Shown here in pieces: positions 9,570 to 57,694 of a stretch of DNA of 61,541 bases (the first letter of the stretch is position 1; the number at the start of each line of letters is the position of its first letter). The stretch is from an uncultured Clostridia bacterium (GTDB lineage: Bacteria > Bacillota > Clostridia > Oscillospirales > Oscillospiraceae), in the NCBI GenBank assembly GCA_947572235.1, contig CANPBB010000005.1:1-61541 (forward strand), in the 5' to 3' direction. Under the pieces are notes generated by a model that saw only the letters and a program-made list of their open reading frames with translations, was not told the origin of the DNA and did not search any database. The position numbers and the translations under genes are program-made.

Positions 9570-9885
9570 CAAAAGCGCGCTTAGGTGTCCGCTCAGGCGG
9601 GCTTTAGCCCCCCTCCTTGGGGGGCACAGCCCTTATTCGCTCCCCCCTAAGAACCCCAAGACGCGACGCAGCTTCGGTAGACTGGTACGTAGGTTTACTG
9701 CGCAGCTTCGGACGCGGCGGCGGTGGCTCTCCCACGGATAAAGGTATCTTGAGAGCGTGCCCCCGTCTTTAGCCATGCTGTAGACGGCCGCTGCCGCTCT
9801 GCCTGCCTCGCTTCGACTTGCCGCCGGGACTTGATAGGGGTTGCGCTGTTCGTAGTGCGGCAAAGGCCGCCGTGCCTATTGGTGT
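9561..9885 (+). repeat. Dispersed long repeat, copy 1
   Basis: Recognised by the shared opening GCTTAGGTGTCCGCTCAGG, the imperfect hairpin around GGCGGGCTTTAGCCC, then CCTAAGAACCCCAAG, the block ACGCGGCGGCGGT, and GCCGCTGCCGCTCTGC. Other copies are at 39112-39565 (same strand), and 27175-27467 and 46880-47325 (opposite strand). Short open frames cross it but differ between copies, so it is treated as non-coding. Confidence 0.75.
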
Positions 9886-9892
9886 ACCGTAT

Positions 9893-10181
9893 GTAGGGGC
9901 GGCCTGTGGCCGCCCGTTTTATAGGCGCTCACCGTATGGGGGGGGAGGACGGGCCGATGGGGACATCGGCCCCTACGGACGAGGGAATTTTGTGGGGACC
10001 GGTGTCCTCACCGGTCCGTTCTACCGGCGCTCGTCGCACTGGGGAAGGGCAGGCGCACGGTGTGCGCCCACATGATGTGTTTGGCTATGCCGTTCGTAGG
10101 GCGCGACGACCTCGGCGCGCCGTCCCTCGTCGGCTGGGATGGTTCGATAGACCACCCGCAGGGGCGGATATGCTCCGCTCG
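9893..10181. repeat. REP/REPIN-like palindrome array 1
   Basis: At least six short palindromes follow one another. Examples are a GTAG-headed GGGGCGGCC/GGCCGCCC at 9893, GGGCCGAT/ATCGGCCC ending in CTAC at 9951-9976, ACCGGTGTCCTCACCGGT near 10000, GGCGCACGGTGTGCGCC near 10050, and a GTAG-headed GGCGCG module at 10096. Pairs face each other across a linker resembling GTTCTACCGGCGCTC. The order matches the array at 50301-50636. It lies just beyond the 3' end of the gene at 10199. Confidence 0.8.
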
Positions 10182-20425: not shown

Positions 20426-20527
20426 CGGACACGGCGCGCCGGGGTCGTCGCGCCCTACAGGCTGGAGCATCGAACACGCTGCGATAGACCGCTTGTAGGG
20501 CGGGACGACCCAACCCGCCGTCCCGCA
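20426..20527. repeat. Two REP-like modules between the DUF4291 gene and cinA
   Basis: Module 1 (20426-20458) reads GGCGCGCC...GTCGTCGCGCC and ends in CTAC. Module 2 (20492-20527) starts GTAGGGCGGGACGACC and closes with CCCGCCGTCCC. They face outward, each with its GTAG toward the other. The rest of the 250-base gap shows nothing else. Confidence 0.7.
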
Positions 20528-21996: not shown

Positions 21997-22143
21997 CCGC
22001 AGGGCGGGACGCCCCCGGCCCGCCGCCCCCCGCCGCCAACCGGGATGATCCGATAAAACTTGTAGGGGCGGACATTGTCCGCCCGCCCCTTCCCAGTTCA
22101 TGGGACATCGACAGAGCGGGCGCACAATGTGCGCCCTTACGGG
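21997..22143. repeat. REP-like modules between cinA and the TPR-like membrane gene
   Basis: Contains a degenerate GGGCGGGACG module (about 22003-22030), a GTAG-headed GGGGCGGACATTGTCCGCCC at 22062-22085, and the inverted GGGCGCACAATGTGCGCCC at 22118-22136, together a REPIN-like facing pair. Confidence 0.75.
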
Positions 22144-34466: not shown

Positions 34467-35480
34467 TTAGGTTGCAATAATGCCAGCAGCCCGGAGGGCG
34501 GCTAAGATCTGATTGATCTCCGTCACAATGGCGCCCAGGTCTGCGGAAGGCTCCAAGTTCGCTATGGCGGCTCCCGGTGTAATGGTGCCGGCAGGCCCGG
34601 TAGGACCGGTGGGGCCAATAGGACCGGCAGGGCCGGCAGGCCCAGTGGGGCCCTCCACACCGGCAGGGCCAGCCGCACCGGCAGGGCCGGCAGGCCCAGT
34701 GGGGCCCATCGCACCGGCGGGGCCAGCCGCACCGGCAGGGCCGGCAGGCCCAGTGGGGCCCTCCGCGCCGGCGGGGCCAGCCGCACCGGCAGGGCCGGCA
34801 GGCCCAGTGGGGCCCTCCACACCGGCAGGGCCAGCCGCACCGGCAGGGCCGGCAGGCCCAGTGGGGCCCATCGCACCGGCGGGGCCAGCCGCACCGGCAG
34901 GCCCAGTGGGGCCCATCGCGCCGGCGGGACCGGCAGCGCCTGTTGCACCAGTCGCACCAGTCGCACCAGTCGCACCAGTCGCACCAGTCGCACCGGTGGC
35001 ACCAGTGGGCCCGGTGGGGCCTTGCGGACCCGCCGCACCCGGGGCGCCTGTTGCACCGGCAGCTCCGGCCGGGCCCATGGGGCCCATAGGTCCGGCAGGG
35101 CCTTGGGGACCTGTCACAGTCACCAAATCAAAATCCGGGGAAGTACCAGGGACCCCCGCCGCGCCGTTGCGGTTGGCGCGGTAAAGGCTGCCGTCATAGT
35201 AGACCAGGCCCCCTAAGGGGTAGTAGGCGCCGGGGACAAAGGGGGCCACGCTGTCCAGCCCCGCACCGGCAGGGCCAGTGGGCCCGGTAGGCCCGGTGGG
35301 GCCAGTGGGACCCATCACGCCCGGACGAGGCGGCATGGGCGGTACTGGATGGGGCGGACGAGGCGGATGAGGCGGGCGGGGCGGCGGCCCGGGAGGGCAG
35401 GGCGGCGGCCCCGGGGGGCAGGGCGGAGGACAGCAGCTCCGGCAGTACTGCTCCCAATCGGTAGCTTGATAACGTTTCAT
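34467..35480 (-). CDS. Collagen-like repeat protein (BclA-type filament)
   Basis: A 337-residue protein starting [20 protein letters not shown] at ATG 35480, six bases after AAGGAG. A cysteine- and proline-rich N-terminus is followed by a Gly-X-Y region interrupted by a small domain ([20 protein letters not shown]), then more than 50 Gly-X-Y triplets, many Gly-Pro-Thr or Gly-Ala-Thr. The C-terminal 40 residues ([19 protein letters not shown]) recur in Clostridial collagen-like surface proteins and may trimerise. Spore exosporium filaments such as BclA are built this way and are O-glycosylated on Thr. The adjacent glycosyltransferase supports that. Confidence 0.88.
34600..34997 (-). repeat. 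Collagen-coding tandem repeats (54 bp and 9 bp)
   Basis: Five near-identical 54-bp units code for [16 protein letters not shown] plus AM, VE or AE (about 34630-34900). A run of 9-bp units coding Gly-Ala-Thr occupies about 34944-34990. Both periods are multiples of three, so slippage changes length without frameshift. Confidence 0.85.
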
Positions 35481-39111: not shown

Positions 39112-39565
39112 ATTCGGCAAAAGGCTCTTAGGTGTCCGCTCAGGCGGGCTTTAGCCCCTTTTTTGGGGGGACACATCCCTTATCTGCTTCCCCCAAGAAC
39201 CCCAAGGCGCGACGCAGCTTTGGCAGACCGGTGCTCATCCAACCTTGCCGTTTCGGACGCGGCGGCGGTGGTTCTCGCAAAGCAGAAGGTATCCCGAAGG
39301 CGCCCCCCGCCTTCAGCCTTTTGGCAAAGCGCCGCTGCCGCTCTGCTTCCCTCGACGCGACTTGCCTCCGGGATCTGAAAAGCCGCTTCGCCGGCATAGT
39401 GCTGCAAGCGCCGCCGTGCTTGCCGGTAGTGTCGGTATGCCGTTTGCGGGGGTGCCCCTTGTGCGCCCGTTCTCCGACAATAGGATGGTCTGTCAAACCG
39501 TTCGCGGGGACACACACAGCGCCGCCGTTGGCGGCTCTGCCGCTTACGTCTGCGGCGTACCCTTT
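39112..39565 (+). repeat. Dispersed long repeat, copy 2 (longest)
   Basis: Starts CAAAAGGCTCTTAGGTGTCC, continues through GGCGGGCTTTAGCCCC, AAGAACCCCAAGGCGCGACG and GCCGCTGCCGCTCTGC, and reaches CGTACCCTTTACGCATATTG. It agrees with copy 1 over its first 300 bases and with copy 4 across almost the whole length. The frames open on either strand differ among copies. Confidence 0.75.
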
Positions 39566-45182: not shown

Positions 45183-45692
45183 AACAGCTCACTCCGATAG
45201 GCTTATGATTTTTTCCGTGTTTTTACTATCCCAAACACAGAACATGTGTTATAATGACATATATATCACCTGTACCGTCAGAAAAAGCACCCCAACCGGC
45301 ACGGCATACCCGGCTATTATAGCATAGGTTTCTGAAAAGTTCCTGCATAAATCGTTAAATTTTCGTTAAAATCTTCGCGGGATTTTCTCTATGCACCCGA
45401 AAAAATCCTGCCCAGCCGCCCTTGGTGCAGCGGAGCGCCGAAGCACCTGCGGCACCGGACGCCGCACATCGGGATGTCCAGCGTGGACGGCCTCGGCCCG
45501 CCATCCCCCGTGTCAACGCGATTGCAGAATATGGCGTGTGCAGGGGCGCACAATGTGCGTCCCTACAGATTCTGACAGCAGAATTTTGTACCTCTAAGTT
45601 TCTGCCCAGCAATTCAAATTGTCCCGCTGCGCGGGGCACCGCAACTCCCAACCCCTAAACTTCTAACTCCTAATTGAAAGGGGGCGCTCGCC
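45183..45692. other. Divergent gap with one REP-like module
   Basis: Between the leftward activase gene and the rightward VTC gene. A dyad AACAC...GTGTT with TATAAT (about 45235-45256) may be a promoter or operator. A REP-like GGGGCGCACAATGTGCGTCC ending in CTAC lies at 45542-45566. No gene is seen. Confidence 0.55.
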
Positions 45693-50300: not shown

Positions 50301-50636
50301 GTAGGGCGCGACGACCCGGCGCGCCGTGTCCGTCCCCCGAACTGCCCCGACAGAGCCCCTCACCCCGTAGGGGCGCGCTCTACCGACACCCGCCGTACCG
50401 GAGAAGGGCGGCGCACCATGCCCGTCCTTCGAACCGCCCCGATAGAACCTCGCACCCCGTAGGGGCGCACATCGTGCGCCCGCTCTACCGACGCCCACCG
50501 TACCGGGGAGGACGGGCCGATGAGGACATCGGCCCCTACGGACGCGGAAATTCTGTAGGGACCGGTGTCCTCACCGGTCCGCTCTACCGACGCCCACCGC
50601 ACCGGGGGAGGACGGGCGCACAATGTGCGCCCCTAC
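50301..50636. repeat. REP/REPIN-like palindrome array 2
   Basis: Six modules in about 340 bases: GTAG-GGCGCGACGACCCGGCGCGCC at 50301 (abridged in meaning: a GGCGCG stem), a truncated GTAGGGGCGCG at 50367, GTAG-GGGCGCACATCGTGCGCCC at 50458, inverted GGGCCGATGAGGACATCGGC ending CTAC at 50512-50538, GTAG-GGACCGGTGTCCTCACC at 50555, and inverted GGGCGCACAATGTGCGCCC ending CTAC at 50613-50636. Facing pairs share the linker GCTCTACCGACGCCCACCG followed by ACCGGGG-AGGAC. Each pair forms one large hairpin. Confidence 0.85.
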
Positions 50637-50866
50637 ATATTCCGACGATCTGTTCGGCCCAGCAAATAATCGGTAGACACACCGAAATAGTCGGCAAGAA
50701 GCACGATATCCAGCGAGGGAACATTGACCTGCCCATACTCGATGGTCTGATAGTGGCGCTCTGTACATTTCAATAATGCCGCCATCTCCCGCTGTTTGAG
50801 TTTTCGCTCTTTTCGCAGCTCCTTTATTCTTGCGGAAAAGAGCGGCATAATAATTTCCTTGCTCAT
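50633..50866 (-). CDS. Small Xre regulator A
   Basis: A 77-residue helix-turn-helix protein starting at ATG 50866 (AGAGGAA upstream). The core is ARIKELRKERKLKQREMAAL, HYQTIEYGQVNVPSLDIVLL, ADYFGVSTDYLLGRTDRR. It is nearly identical to the pseudogene at 55362. Its stop codon TAG is the TAG of the GTAG foot of a REP-like palindrome. It is one of five related genes around uvrB. Confidence 0.9.
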   Translation of the reverse strand: MSKEIIMPLFSARIKELRKERKLKQREMAALLKCTERHYQTIEYGQVNVPSLDIVLLADYFGVSTDYLLGRTDRRNM

Positions 50867-50947
50867 TTCACATTTCCTCTTAACACAAAATGCGGGAGAC
50901 ATTCAATTAAATTTTGTATCTTCATCAACACCTGCCGCAGCAATAAA

Positions 50948-50976
50948 GGACAGGCGCACACTGTGCGCCCCTACAA
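50948..50976 (-). repeat. Single REP-like module after Xre regulator B
   Basis: GGCGCACACTGTGCGCC followed by CCTAC, that is a GTAG foot read leftward, three bases beyond the TGA of the regulator gene. Confidence 0.8.
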
Positions 50977-50978
50977 GG

Positions 50979-51215
50979 TCAACGGCGCTTCCGGCGGTCG
51001 GAAAATCCCAATAGATAATCAATAGATACACCAAAATAGTTGGCAAGGGTAATTATATCTAAAATAGGCAGATTGATCTGTCCATATTCGATTTTTTGAT
51101 AATGGCTTTCCGTACATTCCAGTATGACAGCCATATCTTTCTGCTTTAATTTTTTCTCTTTTCGTAATAATTTAACCCTTTCAGAAAAACCGGGCAAAAC
51201 TACTTCTCGTCCCAT
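50979..51215 (-). CDS. Small Xre regulator B (paired with the 93-aa protein at 51333)
   Basis: A 78-residue regulator MGREVVLPGFSERVKLLRKE with HYQKIEYGQINLPILDIITL and ADYFGVS-like ANYFGVSIDYLLGFSDRR. Its ribosome binding site AAGGAG overlaps the -35 of the divergent promoter at 51229. It probably binds the shared region and controls the neighbouring small gene. Confidence 0.9.
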   Translation of the reverse strand: MGREVVLPGFSERVKLLRKEKKLKQKDMAVILECTESHYQKIEYGQINLPILDIITLANYFGVSIDYLLGFSDRRKRR

Positions 51216-51228
51216 AACTATTTTCTCC

Positions 51229-52361: not shown

Positions 52362-52844
52362 CTACACAACGATATCCGCTTCGGTCCCCTCCACCAGCGC
52401 CATCAGCTCGGCGGGGGACAGGGTCACCTGATAGCCGATTTTCCCGGCGGAGACCGTGATGGCGTCCACAATCCCGGCGGTCTCGTGAAAGACCGTGGGG
52501 TAGGGCTTCCGCATCCCCACCGGGGAGCAGCCCCCCCGGATGTAGCCGGAGAGGGCGAGGATCTCCTTCACGTGGACCATCTCAACCGATTTCTCCCTCA
52601 CCGCCTTGGCGGCTTTTTTTAGGTCCAGGGTGTCCCCCACGGGGATCACAAAGACGTAGATCCCCCCGGAGGCTCCCCGGGCCAGCAGGGTTTTGAACAC
52701 CGTCTCCGGGTCCAAGCCGAGGGCTTGGGCCACGGTGAGCCCATCTACCGCCACCCCCTCCTGATGGGGGTAGGTGCGCGGGGTGTAGGGAATGCGCCGC
52801 TGGTCCAACAGGCGCATCACGTTGGTTTTATCGTCCTTGGGCAT
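52362..52844 (-). CDS. ybaK: Cys-tRNA(Pro)/Cys-tRNA deacylase, YbaK/EbsC type
   Basis: A 160-residue YbaK-like editing protein that hydrolyses Cys mis-attached to tRNA Pro. It shows the catalytic lysine context ETVFKTLLARG (about residues 47-57), VFVIPVGDTLDLKKAAKA and the GGCSPVGMRKPYPTVF loop. The start overlaps the end of the upstream transposase gene by 28 bases, so its translation may depend on that gene. Confidence 0.94.
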   Translation of the reverse strand: MPKDDKTNVMRLLDQRRIPYTPRTYPHQEGVAVDGLTVAQALGLDPETVFKTLLARGASGGIYVFVIPVGDTLDLKKAAKAVREKSVEMVHVKEILALSGYIRGGCSPVGMRKPYPTVFHETAGIVDAITVSAGKIGYQVTLSPAELMALVEGTEADIVV

Positions 52845-53329
52845 TCGAGATCACCGTCCTTGTAATAGCAGTCCTCCCGCCACTTGGCGGGGTTGGTGTC
52901 AATATAGTGCCAGATACGGAGATAATCCGCCTCGCCGCGGATGATGTGGTCGTGGAAGCTCTCCTGCCATATGGAAAAACCGCAGGCCATCGTAACATCA
53001 CACTTCAAAAAACGTACAACCATTGGGATGGATTCTGTGGGGGCCGATGTCCTCATCGGCCCGTCCCCCGGCGCAGGGATACGAAATATAACATGAATGT
53101 GATTTGGCATGATCACATATTTGTCCACCGTTGGCATGGCTGCGATCGTATGATCAACAATTTTCCCGATCTTTGATAATTCGATGTGCGGGGCGATGTG
53201 GACATCGCCCCCTACGATTGTACCGAAAAAATGTTCCCGGCCTTTTGTGCAAATGGTAACAAAATACCACCCTGTCCGGCTGTAATCGTACCCTTGCAGC
53301 CGGTTTTTCCGTCTCCGCGGTTTTCCCAT
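52817..53329 (-). CDS. REP-associated tyrosine transposase (RAYT, IS200-like Y1 family)
   Basis: A 170-residue HUH/Y1 transposase. GWYFVTICTKGREHFFG starts the fold, the metal-binding HIH is in MPNHIHVIFR (residues 77-79), and the probable catalytic tyrosine is in FHDHIIRGEADYLRIWHYID (Tyr136), followed by TNPAKW. RAYT proteins cut REP hairpins next to a conserved tetranucleotide. The ATG at 53329 lies one base after the uvrB TGA. Two REP-like palindromes are inside the gene and encode DVHIAPH and GPMRTSAPTES without breaking the frame. No insertion-sequence ends surround it, as is typical of domesticated RAYTs. Confidence 0.9.
   Translation of the reverse strand: MGKPRRRKNRLQGYDYSRTGWYFVTICTKGREHFFGTIVGGDVHIAPHIELSKIGKIVDHTIAAMPTVDKYVIMPNHIHVIFRIPAPGDGPMRTSAPTESIPMVVRFLKCDVTMACGFSIWQESFHDHIIRGEADYLRIWHYIDTNPAKWREDCYYKDGDLECPRTIKPT
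53037..53063 (+). repeat. REP-like module inside the RAYT gene (1)
   Basis: GTGG followed by GGGCCGATGTCCTCATCGGC and CCG. It matches the GGGCCGAT/ATCGGCCC modules at 9951 and 50512, including the neighbouring ATTCTGT. It codes in frame for about ten residues of a loop. Confidence 0.85.
53189..53215 (-). repeat. REP-like module inside the RAYT gene (2)
   Basis: GGGGCGATGTGGACATCGCCCC ends in CTAC, so read on the gene strand it is a GTAG-headed palindrome. It codes for part of VGGDVHIAPH. Confidence 0.85.
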
Positions 53330-53330
53330 C

Positions 53331-55301
53331 TCACTCCGTCTTCTGCTTGCGCAGCTCAATAATACGGTCGCGCAGGATGGCGGCATATTCGAACTCCAGC
53401 ATCTTGCTGGCCTCCCGCATCTCCTTCTCCAGCCTGACGATCTCCCGCTCCGCCTCGGCCCGGGTGAGCCTGCGGCCGGCGCTGCGCTGGGCGGCCTCGG
53501 CGGACTTGCTGATCTCCAGCACCTCCCGGACGGACTTGATGACGGTCTTGGGGACGATGCCGTGGGCCTTGTTGAATTCGTCCTGCTTCCTCCGGCGGCG
53601 CTCCGTCTCGTCCATGGCGGCCCGCATGCTGCGCGTCACCGTGTCCGCATAGAGGATGACCAGCCCCTCCGCGTTTCGGGCGGCGCGGCCGATGGTCTGG
53701 ATCAGGCTGGTCTCACTGCGGAGGAACCCCTCCTTGTCCGCGTCCAAAATAGCCACCAGAGAGACCTCCGGCATGTCGAGACCCTCCCGCAGCAGATTGA
53801 TGCCCACCAATACGTCGAACTCGCCCAAGCGCAGGTCTCTTATCAGCTCCATCCGCTCGATCGTCTCCACATCGTGGTGCATGTAGCGCACCCGGATGCC
53901 AGCGTTTTTCAGGTAGGCGGTCAGATCCTCCGCCATCTTCTTGGTCAGCGTGGTCACCAGTACCCGCTCGCCCCGCTGGGCCCGCTGGTTGATCTCGCCG
54001 ATCAAATCGTCAATCTGACCGGTGACGGGGCGGACCTCCACCACCGGGTCCAGAAGGCCCGTGGGGCGGATCACCTGCTCCACCACTTGGTCGGCCTGCT
54101 CCCGCTCGTAGTCGGTGGGGGTGGCAGAGACGCAGATGATCTGGTGGAAACGCTCCTCAAACTCCTCAAATCGCAGCGGCCGGTTGTCGAAGGCGCAGGG
54201 GAGGCGGAAGCCGTACTCCACCAAGCTCTCCTTCCGGGCCCTGTCGCCGTTGTACATGGCCCGGACTTGGGGCAAAGTGACGTGGCTTTCGTCCACAAAG
54301 AGAACAAAGTCGTCGGGGAAGTAGTCCAAGAGGGTCATGGGCGGGGAGCCCACCGGGCGGTTGGAGATACAGCGGCTGTAGTTCTCAATACCGGTGCAGT
54401 AGCCCAGCTCCCGCATCATCTCCATGTCGTACTCCGTCCGCTGACGGATCCGCTGGGCCTCCACCAGCTTGTCATTGTCCTCAAAGAATTTGACCCGCTC
54501 CTCCAGCTCCTCCCGGATCTGCACCAGCGCCTGCTCGATCTTCTCCGGGGGAGTAACATAGTGGCTGGCGGGGTAGATGGCCACGTGGTTCAAAAGGCGG
54601 TTCACCGCGCCGGTAAGGGGGTTGATCTCGCTGAGGCGGTCGATCTCGTCACCGAAGAACTCCACCCGGATGGCCCGGTCCCGGTAGTAGGCGGGGTAGA
54701 GCTCCACCGTGTCCCCCCGGACGCGGAACATATTCCGCTCAAAGGCCACATCGTTGCGCTCGTACCGGATCTCCACCAGACGCTGCAAAAGCTCATCCCG
54801 GCTCCGCTCCTGCCCGGTGCGGAGGGAGATCATCATCTTCTCAAAGTCGTCAGGCTCCCCCAAGCCGTAGATACAGGAGACGGAGGCCACCACGATCACG
54901 TCCCGCCGCTCAAAGAGGGCGGCGGTGGCGCTGAGGCGGAGCCGGTCGATCTCGTCGTTGGTGGTGGCATCCTTGGCGATATAGGTGTCGGTATGCGGAA
55001 TATAGGCCTCCGGCTGATAGTAGTCGTAGTAGGAGACGAAGTACTCCACGGCGTTGTTGGGGAAGAACTCCTTAAACTCGGCGCAGAGCTGGGCGGCCAG
55101 GGTCTTATTGTGGGCCAGGACCAGCGTGGGGCGCTGGACGGCCTCAATGACCTTAGCCATGGTGTAGGTCTTCCCCGAGCCGGTGACACCTAAGAGGACC
55201 TGCTGGCGCAGGCCGTCCTCAATGCCGGCGGCCAGCTTCTCAATCGCCTGAGGCTGATCCCCGGCGGGGGTGTAGGGTGAGACAACTTCAAAATTTGGCA
55301 T
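53331..55301 (-). CDS. uvrB: Excinuclease ABC subunit B
   Basis: UvrB verifies damage and loads UvrC in nucleotide excision repair. The 656-residue protein has helicase motif [15 protein letters not shown] (about residues 38-51), the beta-hairpin region [20 protein letters not shown], motif [11 protein letters not shown], motif [14 protein letters not shown], and the C-terminal UVR domain ([20 protein letters not shown]) that binds UvrC. The ATG at 55301 follows AGGAG. It is followed at once by the RAYT and ybaK genes on the same strand. Confidence 0.98.
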
Positions 55302-55361: not shown

Positions 55362-55598
55362 CTACAGGCGCTCCCGGCGGTCTGTACGGCCCAGCAAATA
55401 ATCAGTGGACACGCCGAAGTAGTCGGCAAACAGCATTATATCCAACGAGGGGACATTAACCTGTCCATACTCGATGCACTGGTAGTGACGCTCCGTGCAT
55501 TCCAGCAGTGCTGCCATCTCCCGCTGCTTGAGTTTTCACTCCTTCCGCAGTTCCTTTATCCTTGCAGAAAAAAGCGGCATAATAATTTTTGTATTCAT
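55362..55598 (-). pseudogene. Small Xre regulator C, broken by a stop codon
   Basis: From ATG 55598 the frame reads IMPLFSARIKELRKE, then TGA at codon 21, then KLKQREMAALLECTERHYQC to DYLLGRTDRRERL and TAG. In the close paralogue at 50633 the stop position is CGA (Arg), so a single C-to-T change explains the break. The final TAG belongs to a REP-like GTAGGGGCGCAC. Confidence 0.85.
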
Positions 55599-55602
55599 TT
55601 CG

Positions 55603-55842
55603 TCATTCTCCTCTTGACAGGCTGCCCGTCAGGCCCAGCAGGCAATCGGTAGACACGCCAAAATAGTTAGCGAGGATGAGCAGTGTCGAAACCGGAATAT
55701 TGATCTGCCCATATTCTATCATCTGATAGTACCGCACCGTACATTGCAGCAGCTCTGCCATATTCTTCTGCGTCAAATTTCTCGCTTTCCGCAGTTCTTT
55801 CAATTTAGCAGAGAAATCCGGTAAAATAGTTTCACGTGTCAT
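55603..55842 (-). CDS. Small Xre regulator D
   Basis: A 79-residue regulator MTRETILPDFSAKLKELRKA with RYYQMIEYGQINIPVSTLLI and ANYFGVSTDCLLGLTG, starting at ATG 55842 with AGGAGG upstream. It is more diverged than A, B and E and has no REP at its end. The next gene C follows after 4 bases. Confidence 0.88.
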   Translation of the reverse strand: MTRETILPDFSAKLKELRKARNLTQKNMAELLQCTVRYYQMIEYGQINIPVSTLLILANYFGVSTDCLLGLTGSLSRGE

Positions 55843-55948
55843 GGTTCAGCCCCCTCCTGACATGAAGCTGTACAAAAACCCACCGAAGGGCCCATTGAAA
55901 CGTCTCTGGCACCAGAAGAACAGGTAGATAGAACCCGCCCCTACAAAA

Positions 55949-56179
55949 TCAACGGCGCTTCCGATGATCATCCAACCCCAAAAGGTAATCGGCAGACACA
56001 TCAAAATAATCGGCAAGGGTAACTAAATCCAACGATGGGACATTGATCTGCCCATACTCAATCCGTTGGTAGTGGCGGTCTGTACAATTGAGCAACTCCG
56101 CCATATCCTTTTGCGTGCGCTTCTTCTCTTTTCGGAGCTCTTTTAGTCTGGCAGAAAAAATTGGCATGATAACATTCAT
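55949..56179 (-). CDS. Small Xre regulator E (paired with the 93-aa protein at 56265)
   Basis: A 76-residue regulator MNVIMPIFSARLKELRKEKK with HYQRIEYGQINVPSLDLVTL and ADYFDVSADYLLGLDDHRKR. It ends TGA right next to a half REP (GTAGGGGCGGG, 55930-55944). It is divergent from the second 93-aa gene with the same overlap of ribosome binding site and -35 as pair one. Confidence 0.9.
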   Translation of the reverse strand: MNVIMPIFSARLKELRKEKKRTQKDMAELLNCTDRHYQRIEYGQINVPSLDLVTLADYFDVSADYLLGLDDHRKRR

Positions 56180-56192
56180 TTGAAACTTCCCC

Positions 56193-57452: not shown

Positions 57453-57471
57453 AACAGAAGGAATATCATAA

Positions 57472-57694
57472 GGTCCGGTAGGCAAGGCTACCTCAGGGAT
57501 ATGGATCGCTGCCGCGTAACCGTGGAGACACGGTGGGATGGTTTGAGCAGGTCATGTCGAAAACAAGGCATGATCTAATGCGATTTCACCGCCCTGAGAT
57601 GCTAAAGCTCGAACGGTGGTCGGGGAGAGGATGCGCCCCGATTCTCAGCGCAGATGCCATGACTGCCGGGTTGCCGCAAGTCATGGATTTTTTT
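57472..57694 (+). ncRNA. M-box (ykoK) magnesium riboswitch with terminator
   Basis: The aptamer shows the M-box signatures in order: GGTAGGCAAGGCTACC, ATGGATCGCTGCCG, CAGGTCATGTCGAAAACAAG with GGCATGATCTAATGC, and GATGCTAAAGCTCGAACG. CTCAGGG (57492-57498) pairs with CCCTGAG (57592-57598) to close the long stem. An intrinsic terminator follows: CCATGACT (57657-57664) with AGTCATGG (57679-57686) and seven T. High Mg2+ should fold the aptamer and stop transcription before mgtE. Confidence 0.95.

What the first reader, a model, noticed from the sequence alone, without database searches (positions are those of the whole stretch)
52817..53329. A REP/RAYT system: one Y1 transposase gene and about twenty GTAG-headed palindromes
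Seen: a 170-aa HUH/Y1 transposase gene (HIH at 77-79, Tyr136), and many short GC palindromes in gaps at 9893, 10096, 11065, 20426, 20492, 22062, 26993, 45542, 50301-50636, 50950 and elsewhere, most with GTAG directly at the foot of the stem on one strand. Known: RAYT transposases of gammaproteobacteria act on REP hairpins headed by a GTAG-type tetranucleotide. Inference: this Firmicute has its own REP/RAYT pair, with stems that vary while the foot is constant.
Basis: partly seen in the sequence, partly recalled or inferred. Interest (0 to 1): 0.85.

Follow-up and report, generated by a model that had tools for sequence, protein, structure and literature searches.

The report
Transposase gene carrying its own substrates
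A Clostridia-type bacterium has a REP/RAYT system (a small DNA-cutting enzyme plus the short hairpin repeats it is thought to act on), and two copies of the repeat sit in frame inside the enzyme's own gene, match each other, and vary together with the enzyme's probable DNA-reading part.

The parts
52817..53329 (-). RAYT (TnpA-REP-type HUH/Y1) gene, 170 aa, HIH 77-79, catalytic Tyr most likely Y142, WQ 121-122
53189..53215 (-). Internal REP, site 1: GTAG foot on the coding strand, 10-bp stem, encodes VGGDVHIAP in the loop before helix A
53037..53063 (+). Internal REP, site 2: foot GTGG on the non-coding strand, 9-bp stem, encodes part of GDGPMRTSAPT in the poorly predicted loop between HUH and the next helix
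   Evidence: residues 88-97 have pLDDT under 50
52961..53263 (-). Central segment (about residues 23-123: site 1, HUH, site 2, WQ) that differs as a block in the sister species G010; limits approximate
   Evidence: 58% identity and 66 gap columns here, against 96-99% on both sides
53331..55301 (-). uvrB, directly upstream; RAYT starts one base after its stop
52362..52844 (-). Gene with an aminoacyl-tRNA editing domain (PF04073; called YbaK-like in my notes from recall), overlapping the RAYT 3' end by 28 nt
9893..10121 (.). Cluster of dispersed REPs of mixed stems (9893+, 9976-, 9992+, 10071-, 10096+)
20433..20458 (-). Dispersed REP, CGCGACGACC stem
22062..22140 (.). Inverted REP pair (22062+ with GTAG, 22140- with GTAA)
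45542..45566 (-). Dispersed REP, imperfect stem
50301..50636 (.). REP cluster between uvrA and an HTH gene: 50301+, 50459+, 50539-, 50555+, 50636-
50952..50974 (-). Dispersed REP between two small genes

Best explanation
This is a REP/RAYT system in a Clostridia-type Firmicute. The RAYT is an HUH/Y1 single-strand DNA endonuclease that most likely reads the GTAG foot with its WQ region and the hairpin stem with the helix after site 2, and cuts and rejoins REP single strands (inferred from E. coli TnpA-REP, not shown here). Shown by sequence: its gene carries two REPs, in frame, in two loops either side of HUH, in inverted orientation with feet outward, which is the REPIN arrangement; the pair is matched in stem within each gene; stem class co-varies with the helix after site 2; and the middle of the gene differs as one block between two sister species whose gene ends are nearly identical. 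Inferred: the gene keeps enzyme specificity and substrate together as one module. When the module changes, by recombination or by RAYT-driven rewriting, enzyme and internal REPs change together and a new REP type can spread. Dispersed REPs of several stems would then be partly the legacy of earlier modules.
For: Family. Internal pair: 50 of 67 ORFs, wrong orientation 1 of 67 (site 1) and 0 of 67 (site 2), synonymous null 0.1 of 67; 44 of 80 in the partly overlapping second set, wrong way 2 and 4 of 80. Within-gene match: 8.65 of 9 arm bases and 50 of 51 of equal length, against 4.93 and 17.7 shuffled. Own-genome link: 25 REPs flanking 14 of 59 loci match the own gene at 7.96, against 5.05 permuted; the AAGGCAG stem occurs 39 times in G011, whose genes carry it, once in G138 and 0 times in the other 196 genomes; G060, whose gene carries CCGATG, has 27 copies of that type and none of the CGCGACGACC type. 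Enzyme-stem link: the nearest gene by masked middle has the same hairpin length in 94% of 89 genes, against 51% by the ends and 34% permuted; 15 of 20 columns after site 2 exceed z 4, against 1 of 35 before site 1, 6 of 45 between the REPs and 1 of 31 after WQ; fewest changes of hairpin length on trees: 12 (segment after site 2), 23 (between the REPs), 32 (ends), shuffled about 40. The top column is C110, aligned with E. coli K82, which contacts a REP stem base (PMC8266576 passage). Block difference.
Against: Nothing here shows cleavage, binding or transposition. Four genomes are rich in REP matches without a detected RAYT, and 17 of 49 genomes with a RAYT hit have 2 or fewer matches to the one REP pattern counted, though that pattern sees one stem class only. 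Stem and resident gene do not always agree: G083 has three copies of the GCGGGATG stem and G106 five close variants, while the RAYT genes that I fetched from them carry other stems or none. In the window's genome most listed dispersed REPs (GCGCACA and CCGGTG stems) are not the stem now inside the gene. In the sister pair the resident stem is not clearly enriched beyond the general excess in G010 (16 against 55 for one stem, 20 against 25 for the other, internal copies included). High single columns also occur outside the segment after site 2 (z 13.2 before site 1, 12.3 between the REPs, 11.0 just after WQ), and the z values ignore shared ancestry. The block difference rests on one clear pair, with L040/L155 only suggestive. 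NF047646's cut-off is not reached.
Confidence: 0.6

Rival explanations
1. Passive landing: REPs merely tolerate insertion in two surface loops of RAYT genes, and look matched because they came from the same recent REP population or were homogenised by template switching between nearby inverted repeats. They have no role in the enzyme system.
For: Both sites are loops, site 2 poorly predicted. REPs inside other genes and in RAYT genes are reported as tolerable insertions (PMC3733652 and PMC6006769 passages). Two REPs in one loop (L229) and a reversed pair (L202) occur. 17 of the 127 genes score for neither site.
Against: The same two sites and orientation recur in 50 of 67 and 44 of 80 genes. 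Stem class follows the segment outside the REP pair more closely than the segment between the REPs, which plain linkage does not predict. Genes scoring for neither REP do not have clearly shorter loops (medians 66 and 66 aa at site 1, 46 and 43 at site 2), so some may be decayed copies and not empty sites.
Confidence: 0.25
2. Autoregulation: the internal hairpins work in the RAYT mRNA or single-stranded gene as binding sites for the RAYT itself, limiting its expression, with matching kept by the need to be bound.
For: The hairpins are in the coding sequence; RAYT sits one base after uvrB and overlaps the next gene, so it is probably co-transcribed (inference). It also predicts stem-helix co-variation. 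PMC3733652 suggests that REP hairpins could lower RAYT expression (passage).
Against: Site 2 has its foot on the non-coding strand, so only site 1 presents GTAG in the mRNA. The known substrate of the E. coli enzyme is single-strand DNA.
Confidence: 0.12
3. Protein-level constraint: the loop peptides (VGxxxxxP, GxxxxxAPT) are what selection keeps, and the palindromes follow from them.
For: Similar peptides recur in many relatives.
Against: Synonymous resampling of the same proteins gives both hairpins in 0.1 of 67; peptides vary widely while hairpins recur.
Confidence: 0.02

Closest known systems
TnpA-REP / RAYT subclass 2.4 (Bertels group 4), as described in PMC6006769 (sections 13 and 17 and passages seen)
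   Same: NH[IFV]H, WQ, a Y---NP motif, long GTAG-footed REPs with a G-C base, and in-frame REP insertions within the RAYT gene, generally between HuH and Y
   Different: Here a second REP lies before HUH, making an inverted pair; stems match within the gene and co-vary with the helix after site 2. The text seen describes none of these. Its supplementary Figure S10 was not seen.
E. coli TnpA-REP (group 2 / subclass 2.2), PDB 4er8
   Same: Fold, HUH, WQ, Y---NP, GTAG-hairpin association; one RAYT with several REP types (y, z1, z2) in mosaics (PMC8266576 passages)
   Different: E. coli REPs have a bulged stem; a REP pair inside the gene is not mentioned in the passages seen
REPIN (inverted REP pair; recalled, with the title and start of abstract of PMC3116915 seen in a search listing)
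   Same: Two REPs in inverted orientation, feet outward
   Different: The internal pair spans a median 191 nt of coding sequence with HUH
IS200/IS605 TnpA (IS608, ISDra2)
   Different: Y---NP instead of the Y---Q signature of subclass 1.1; single match in its genome; Pfam Y1_Tnp is under its cut-off. Element ends were not searched for.

Membership tests
RAYT / TnpA-REP | HUH and Y---NP motifs on the Y1 HUH fold | tested here: met
RAYT / TnpA-REP | Over the NCBIfam equivalog cut-off (NF047646, 80 bits) | tested here: not met
   51.6 bits, E 8.6e-14; a name by this model alone would be withheld. I use RAYT for the wider class, on motifs, fold and REPs
RAYT / TnpA-REP | GTAG-footed REPs at or near the gene and in many copies in the genome | tested here: met
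RAYT / TnpA-REP | Binding and cleavage of single-strand REP | not testable with these tools
   needs protein
RAYT subclass 2.4 | NH[IFV]H, WQ, YIxNNP | tested here: inconclusive
   NHIH and WQ met; the window has YIDTNP, so the fourth letter differs
RAYT subclass 2.4 | REP inserted in frame in the gene | tested here: met
RAYT subclass 2.4 | Long HuH-Y distance (median 88 aa) | tested here: not met
   about 65 aa in the window protein (77 to 142); a median, not a limit
RAYT subclass 2.4 | Falls in the 2.4 cluster of the published partition | not tested
   reference sequences were not at hand; I do not file it as a 2.4 member
REPIN | Inverted REP pair, feet outward | tested here: met
   for the internal pair; definition recalled

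The most novel reading that the evidence does not exclude
RAYT genes of these Clostridia are self-labelled specificity modules. The middle of the gene codes for both the stem-reading helix and a matched pair of the substrate it reads, and is exchanged between genes as a unit, with the REPs possibly serving as the recombination handles. Each exchange would install a new REP type, so that the mixed REP stems of a genome are a record of earlier modules.
Probability: 0.3. Interest if true: 0.85.

Novelty: new variant of a known kind. Interest (0 to 1): 0.68.

Why it matters
How RAYTs choose their REPs, and how enzyme and repeat stay matched over evolution, is open; [quoted passage not shown] Here each gene carries its own presumed substrate, so enzyme and substrate can be paired by reading one sequence. 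That gives dozens of natural enzyme-stem pairs (35 distinct site-1 arms in 51 genes), points to a few helix residues as candidate specificity determinants, and makes swap experiments straightforward. It also extends RAYT/REP biology into Clostridia: the word Firmicutes occurs nowhere in the main text of PMC3733652 or PMC6006769, and the search for extragenic palindromes with Oscillospir and transposase found no paper.

Tried and rejected
Protein-level constraint as the cause of the palindromes: rejected by the synonymous null. Strict dependence of REPs on a present RAYT: rejected, because G056, G181, G146 and G016 keep many matches with no hit (G056 is in 160 contigs with several REPs at contig ends, so an assembly gap is possible). 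Direct test that the resident stem is the one amplified in each sister species: inconclusive. DNA identity between the REPs as a predictor of the stem: no relation below 80% identity, six pairs above; the protein-level test with hairpin-coded residues left out was then used. A first column scan on a gappy alignment reported no column after site 2 and was replaced by segment-wise alignment. HUH-Y distances printed are wrong (script slip) and are not used. Rfam has no match for these REPs in the window; its only match is an M-box. Foldseek proper was not run; VIA-align looked only at Foldseek's own top chains. I had meant to use the foot codon as evidence: site-1 Val is GTA in 100 of 100 in-frame cases, against 21% of other Val codons, but the scan admitted only GTAG and GTGG, so the fair comparison is GTA against GTG (elsewhere 283 to 379); likewise pairing was part of how hairpins were chosen, so kept pairing is partly by construction.

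Rows dropped: 70 loci were taken for the 103 matches (short fragments left out); 3 of the 70 (L049, L068, L102) had no HUH in an open frame and were not scored. The second set (80 loci, the best 80 of 404) overlaps the first in some contigs (for example L156 with G147, L165 with G046, by equal contig lengths); duplicates by sequence were removed, not. Genes without both hairpins or a recognised WQ were left out (89 or 90 genes kept).

Full report
1. What was claimed.

3. The palindromes. In the window, 25 hairpins have GT[AG][AG] at the foot, of which I class 16 as REP-like. Genome-wide the pattern GTAGGGGCN{8,11}GCCCG occurs 42 times against 3 for the control. In several places they form inverted pairs and clusters of mixed stems (for example 9893-10121 and 50301-50636), and a 128-nt unit is repeated at 9942 and 50505 with 88% identity.

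4. What was missed. Two of the palindromes lie inside the RAYT ORF: 53189-53215 with GTAG on the coding strand (site 1, before HUH) and 53037-53063 with GTGG on the other strand (site 2, after HUH). They are read in frame as VGGDVHIAP and as part of GDGPMRTSAPT. In the model site 1 is a loop between two strands, and site 2 lies in the one inner stretch with pLDDT under 50 (residues 88-97).

5. It is a family trait. The protein was found in 49 of 198 genomes, the window's own included (103 matches). I took 70 loci; 67 had HUH in an open frame. 54 have a GT[AG]G hairpin at site 1 with the foot on the coding strand, 55 at site 2 with the foot on the other strand, and 50 have both; the opposite orientations occur 1 and 0 times. 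Resampling synonymous codons of the same proteins gives 1.1, 1.4 and 0.1. The best 80 of 404 relatives in the GTDB collection gave 50, 59 and 44 of 80, wrong way 2 and 4; by their titles they are mostly Clostridia, with single records from other phyla, and they partly overlap the first set. Of the 127 distinct genes, 17 score for neither site; their loops are not clearly shorter (medians 66 and 66 aa, 46 and 43 aa).

6. The two stems in a gene match. In 51 genes the nine-base arms agree at 8.65 positions and 50 pairs have equal length; dealt out among genes the values are 4.93 (maximum 5.61 of 10,000) and 17.7 (maximum 30). Different genes of one genome agree no better (4.73; 40 ordered comparisons). 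The second set gives 8.5 against 4.94 (maximum 5.86) in 44 genes. Between genes stem positions from the third pair inward take several different Watson-Crick pairs (pairing was part of the selection, the variety was not). In the window the two stems differ at one base pair, changed on both sides, and at one loop base, and the feet are GTAG and GTGG.

7. Link to the rest of the genome. In 14 of 59 loci there are 25 REPs next to the gene; their arms match the own gene at 7.96 of 9, against 5.05 with genes permuted (maximum 6.6). The stem AAGGCAG is found 39 times in G011, which has two RAYT genes with it, once in G138, and in none of the other 196 genomes. The GCGGGATG pattern is exact only in G101 and G022, whose genes carry it, and many other matches in the seven genomes are variants changed on both sides of the stem; but G083 has three copies with this stem and a loop change, and G106 five GGCATG variants, although the genes that I fetched from them carry other stems or none. 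In the genus, G000 and G010 have the gene and 42 and 84 REP matches; the nine others have 0-3 and no hit, G005 having a weak, broken NF047646 hit (E 2.3e-6). In G009 and G007 no RAYT is found beside the uvrB end and the tRNA_edit gene (ORFs of G009). Over 198 genomes: 24 of 49 against 7 of 149 with 8 or more matches, p 1.2e-11. Against: G056 (118), G181 (53), G146 (40) and G016 (31) have no RAYT hit in two searches, and most of the places listed for G056, G016 and G181 are true palindromes (none of G146 was listed).

8. Enzyme and stem go together. I left out the hairpin-coded residues and compared the rest (89 genes). The nearest gene by the middle shares the hairpin length in 94% of cases and 7.78 of 9 arm bases; by the two ends, 51% and 6.39; permuted, 34% and 4.99. 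On short trees hairpin length changes 12 times on the segment after site 2, 23 on the segment between the REPs, 16 on both together, 32 on the ends; shuffled about 40 (lowest 31-34 of 200). Column by column 15 of 20 columns after site 2 exceed z 4, against 6 of 45 between the REPs, 1 of 35 before and 1 of 31 after WQ; single high columns lie in every segment (z 15.1, 13.2, 12.3 and 11.0). The association remains among genes with dissimilar ends (nearest by the segment after site 2: 67% same length against 30% for random picks). The top column is C110 of the window protein. In the alignment, counting from the printed residue 50, it faces K82 of E. coli TnpA-REP; the same count puts W94 and Q95 where PMC6006769 has them. 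PMC8266576 states that K82 in the DNA-binding helix contacts a bulged base of the REP stem (passage). The segment lies outside the REP pair, so plain linkage does not explain why it follows the stem best. Shared ancestry is not removed from the z values.

9. Block difference. G000 and G010 have the gene at the same place. Identity is 96% up to about codon 23, 58% with 66 gap columns over the next 356 alignment columns (both REPs, HUH, WQ), and 98-99% after that. The G010 middle is closest to L191, which has the same CGCGACGACC stem, and the G000 middle to L035, which has the CCGATG stem, while the ends of the two are closest to each other. Replacement of the middle by recombination is the simplest reading. 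This is one clear case; L040/L155 may be a second. Whether the resident stem is the one that spreads could not be decided: CGCGACGACC-type copies are 16 in G000 and 55 in G010, CCGATG-type 20 and 25 (internal copies included), while G010 has about twice as many REP matches overall; five other genus members have none of either.

10. Known and new. RAYT/REP systems are well known, and PMC6006769 (sections 13 and 17 and passages seen; supplement not seen) reports for subclass 2.4 that REPs are inserted in frame in the RAYT gene, generally between HuH and Y, in a peripheral extension that may have little impact on activity. The window gene fits that description in part (membership table). What I did not find in the passages and sections seen, nor in the listings of seven library searches, is the second REP before HUH, the matching of the pair, the link to the helix after site 2, and the block difference. 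Bertels and co-workers' 2017 paper is known to me only through PMC6006769 and recall.

11. Mechanism. Shown by sequence: family, pair, matching, co-variation, block difference, association with abundance. Inferred: that the enzyme binds and cuts these hairpins; that internal REPs are substrates, handles for exchange, or seeds; that mixed stems are a legacy of earlier modules. The passive reading (tolerated insertions, homogenised by template switching) stays open.

Noticed in passing
window 57467-57627 (+): M-box (magnesium) riboswitch, RF00380, 97.7 bits, the only Rfam match in the window at gathering score.
   Followed up: no
window 50642-51218 and 55374-56188: Five copies of a 228-nt family, the other four 64-83% identical to the reference copy; two cover small ORFs 50633-50902 and 50979-51215, the first with an HTH_3 domain. 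They flank the uvrB-RAYT block, and a 286-nt pair (51329, 56261) is repeated too.
   Followed up: partly
window 34552-35111: Long array of 9- and 18-nt repeats of the GGNCC type, like a collagen-type Gly-X-Y coding repeat (reading from the sequence only).
   Followed up: no
window 9572-9656 and 39119-39203: An 85-nt stretch repeated at 80% identity 29.5 kb apart, with a second shared stretch about 190 nt further on.
   Followed up: no
L202 (Pseudoflavonifractor MAG), L229 (Latescibacterota MAG), L186 (Chitinispirillales MAG): Variant internal REPs: feet inward in L202; two REPs in the single loop after HUH in L229; a degenerate REP in a long insert before HUH in L186 whose peptide ends like a second REP.
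   Followed up: partly
G056 (118 REP matches, no RAYT hit): Genome estimated 100% complete in 160 contigs, with many closely spaced REP pairs, several at contig ends, and no RAYT found by two searches.
   Followed up: partly
internal REPs of the 27-nt class: A recurrent single mismatch (G-A or A-G) at the seventh pair in 25 of 65 distinct hairpins, reminiscent of the stem irregularity of E. coli REPs.
   Followed up: no
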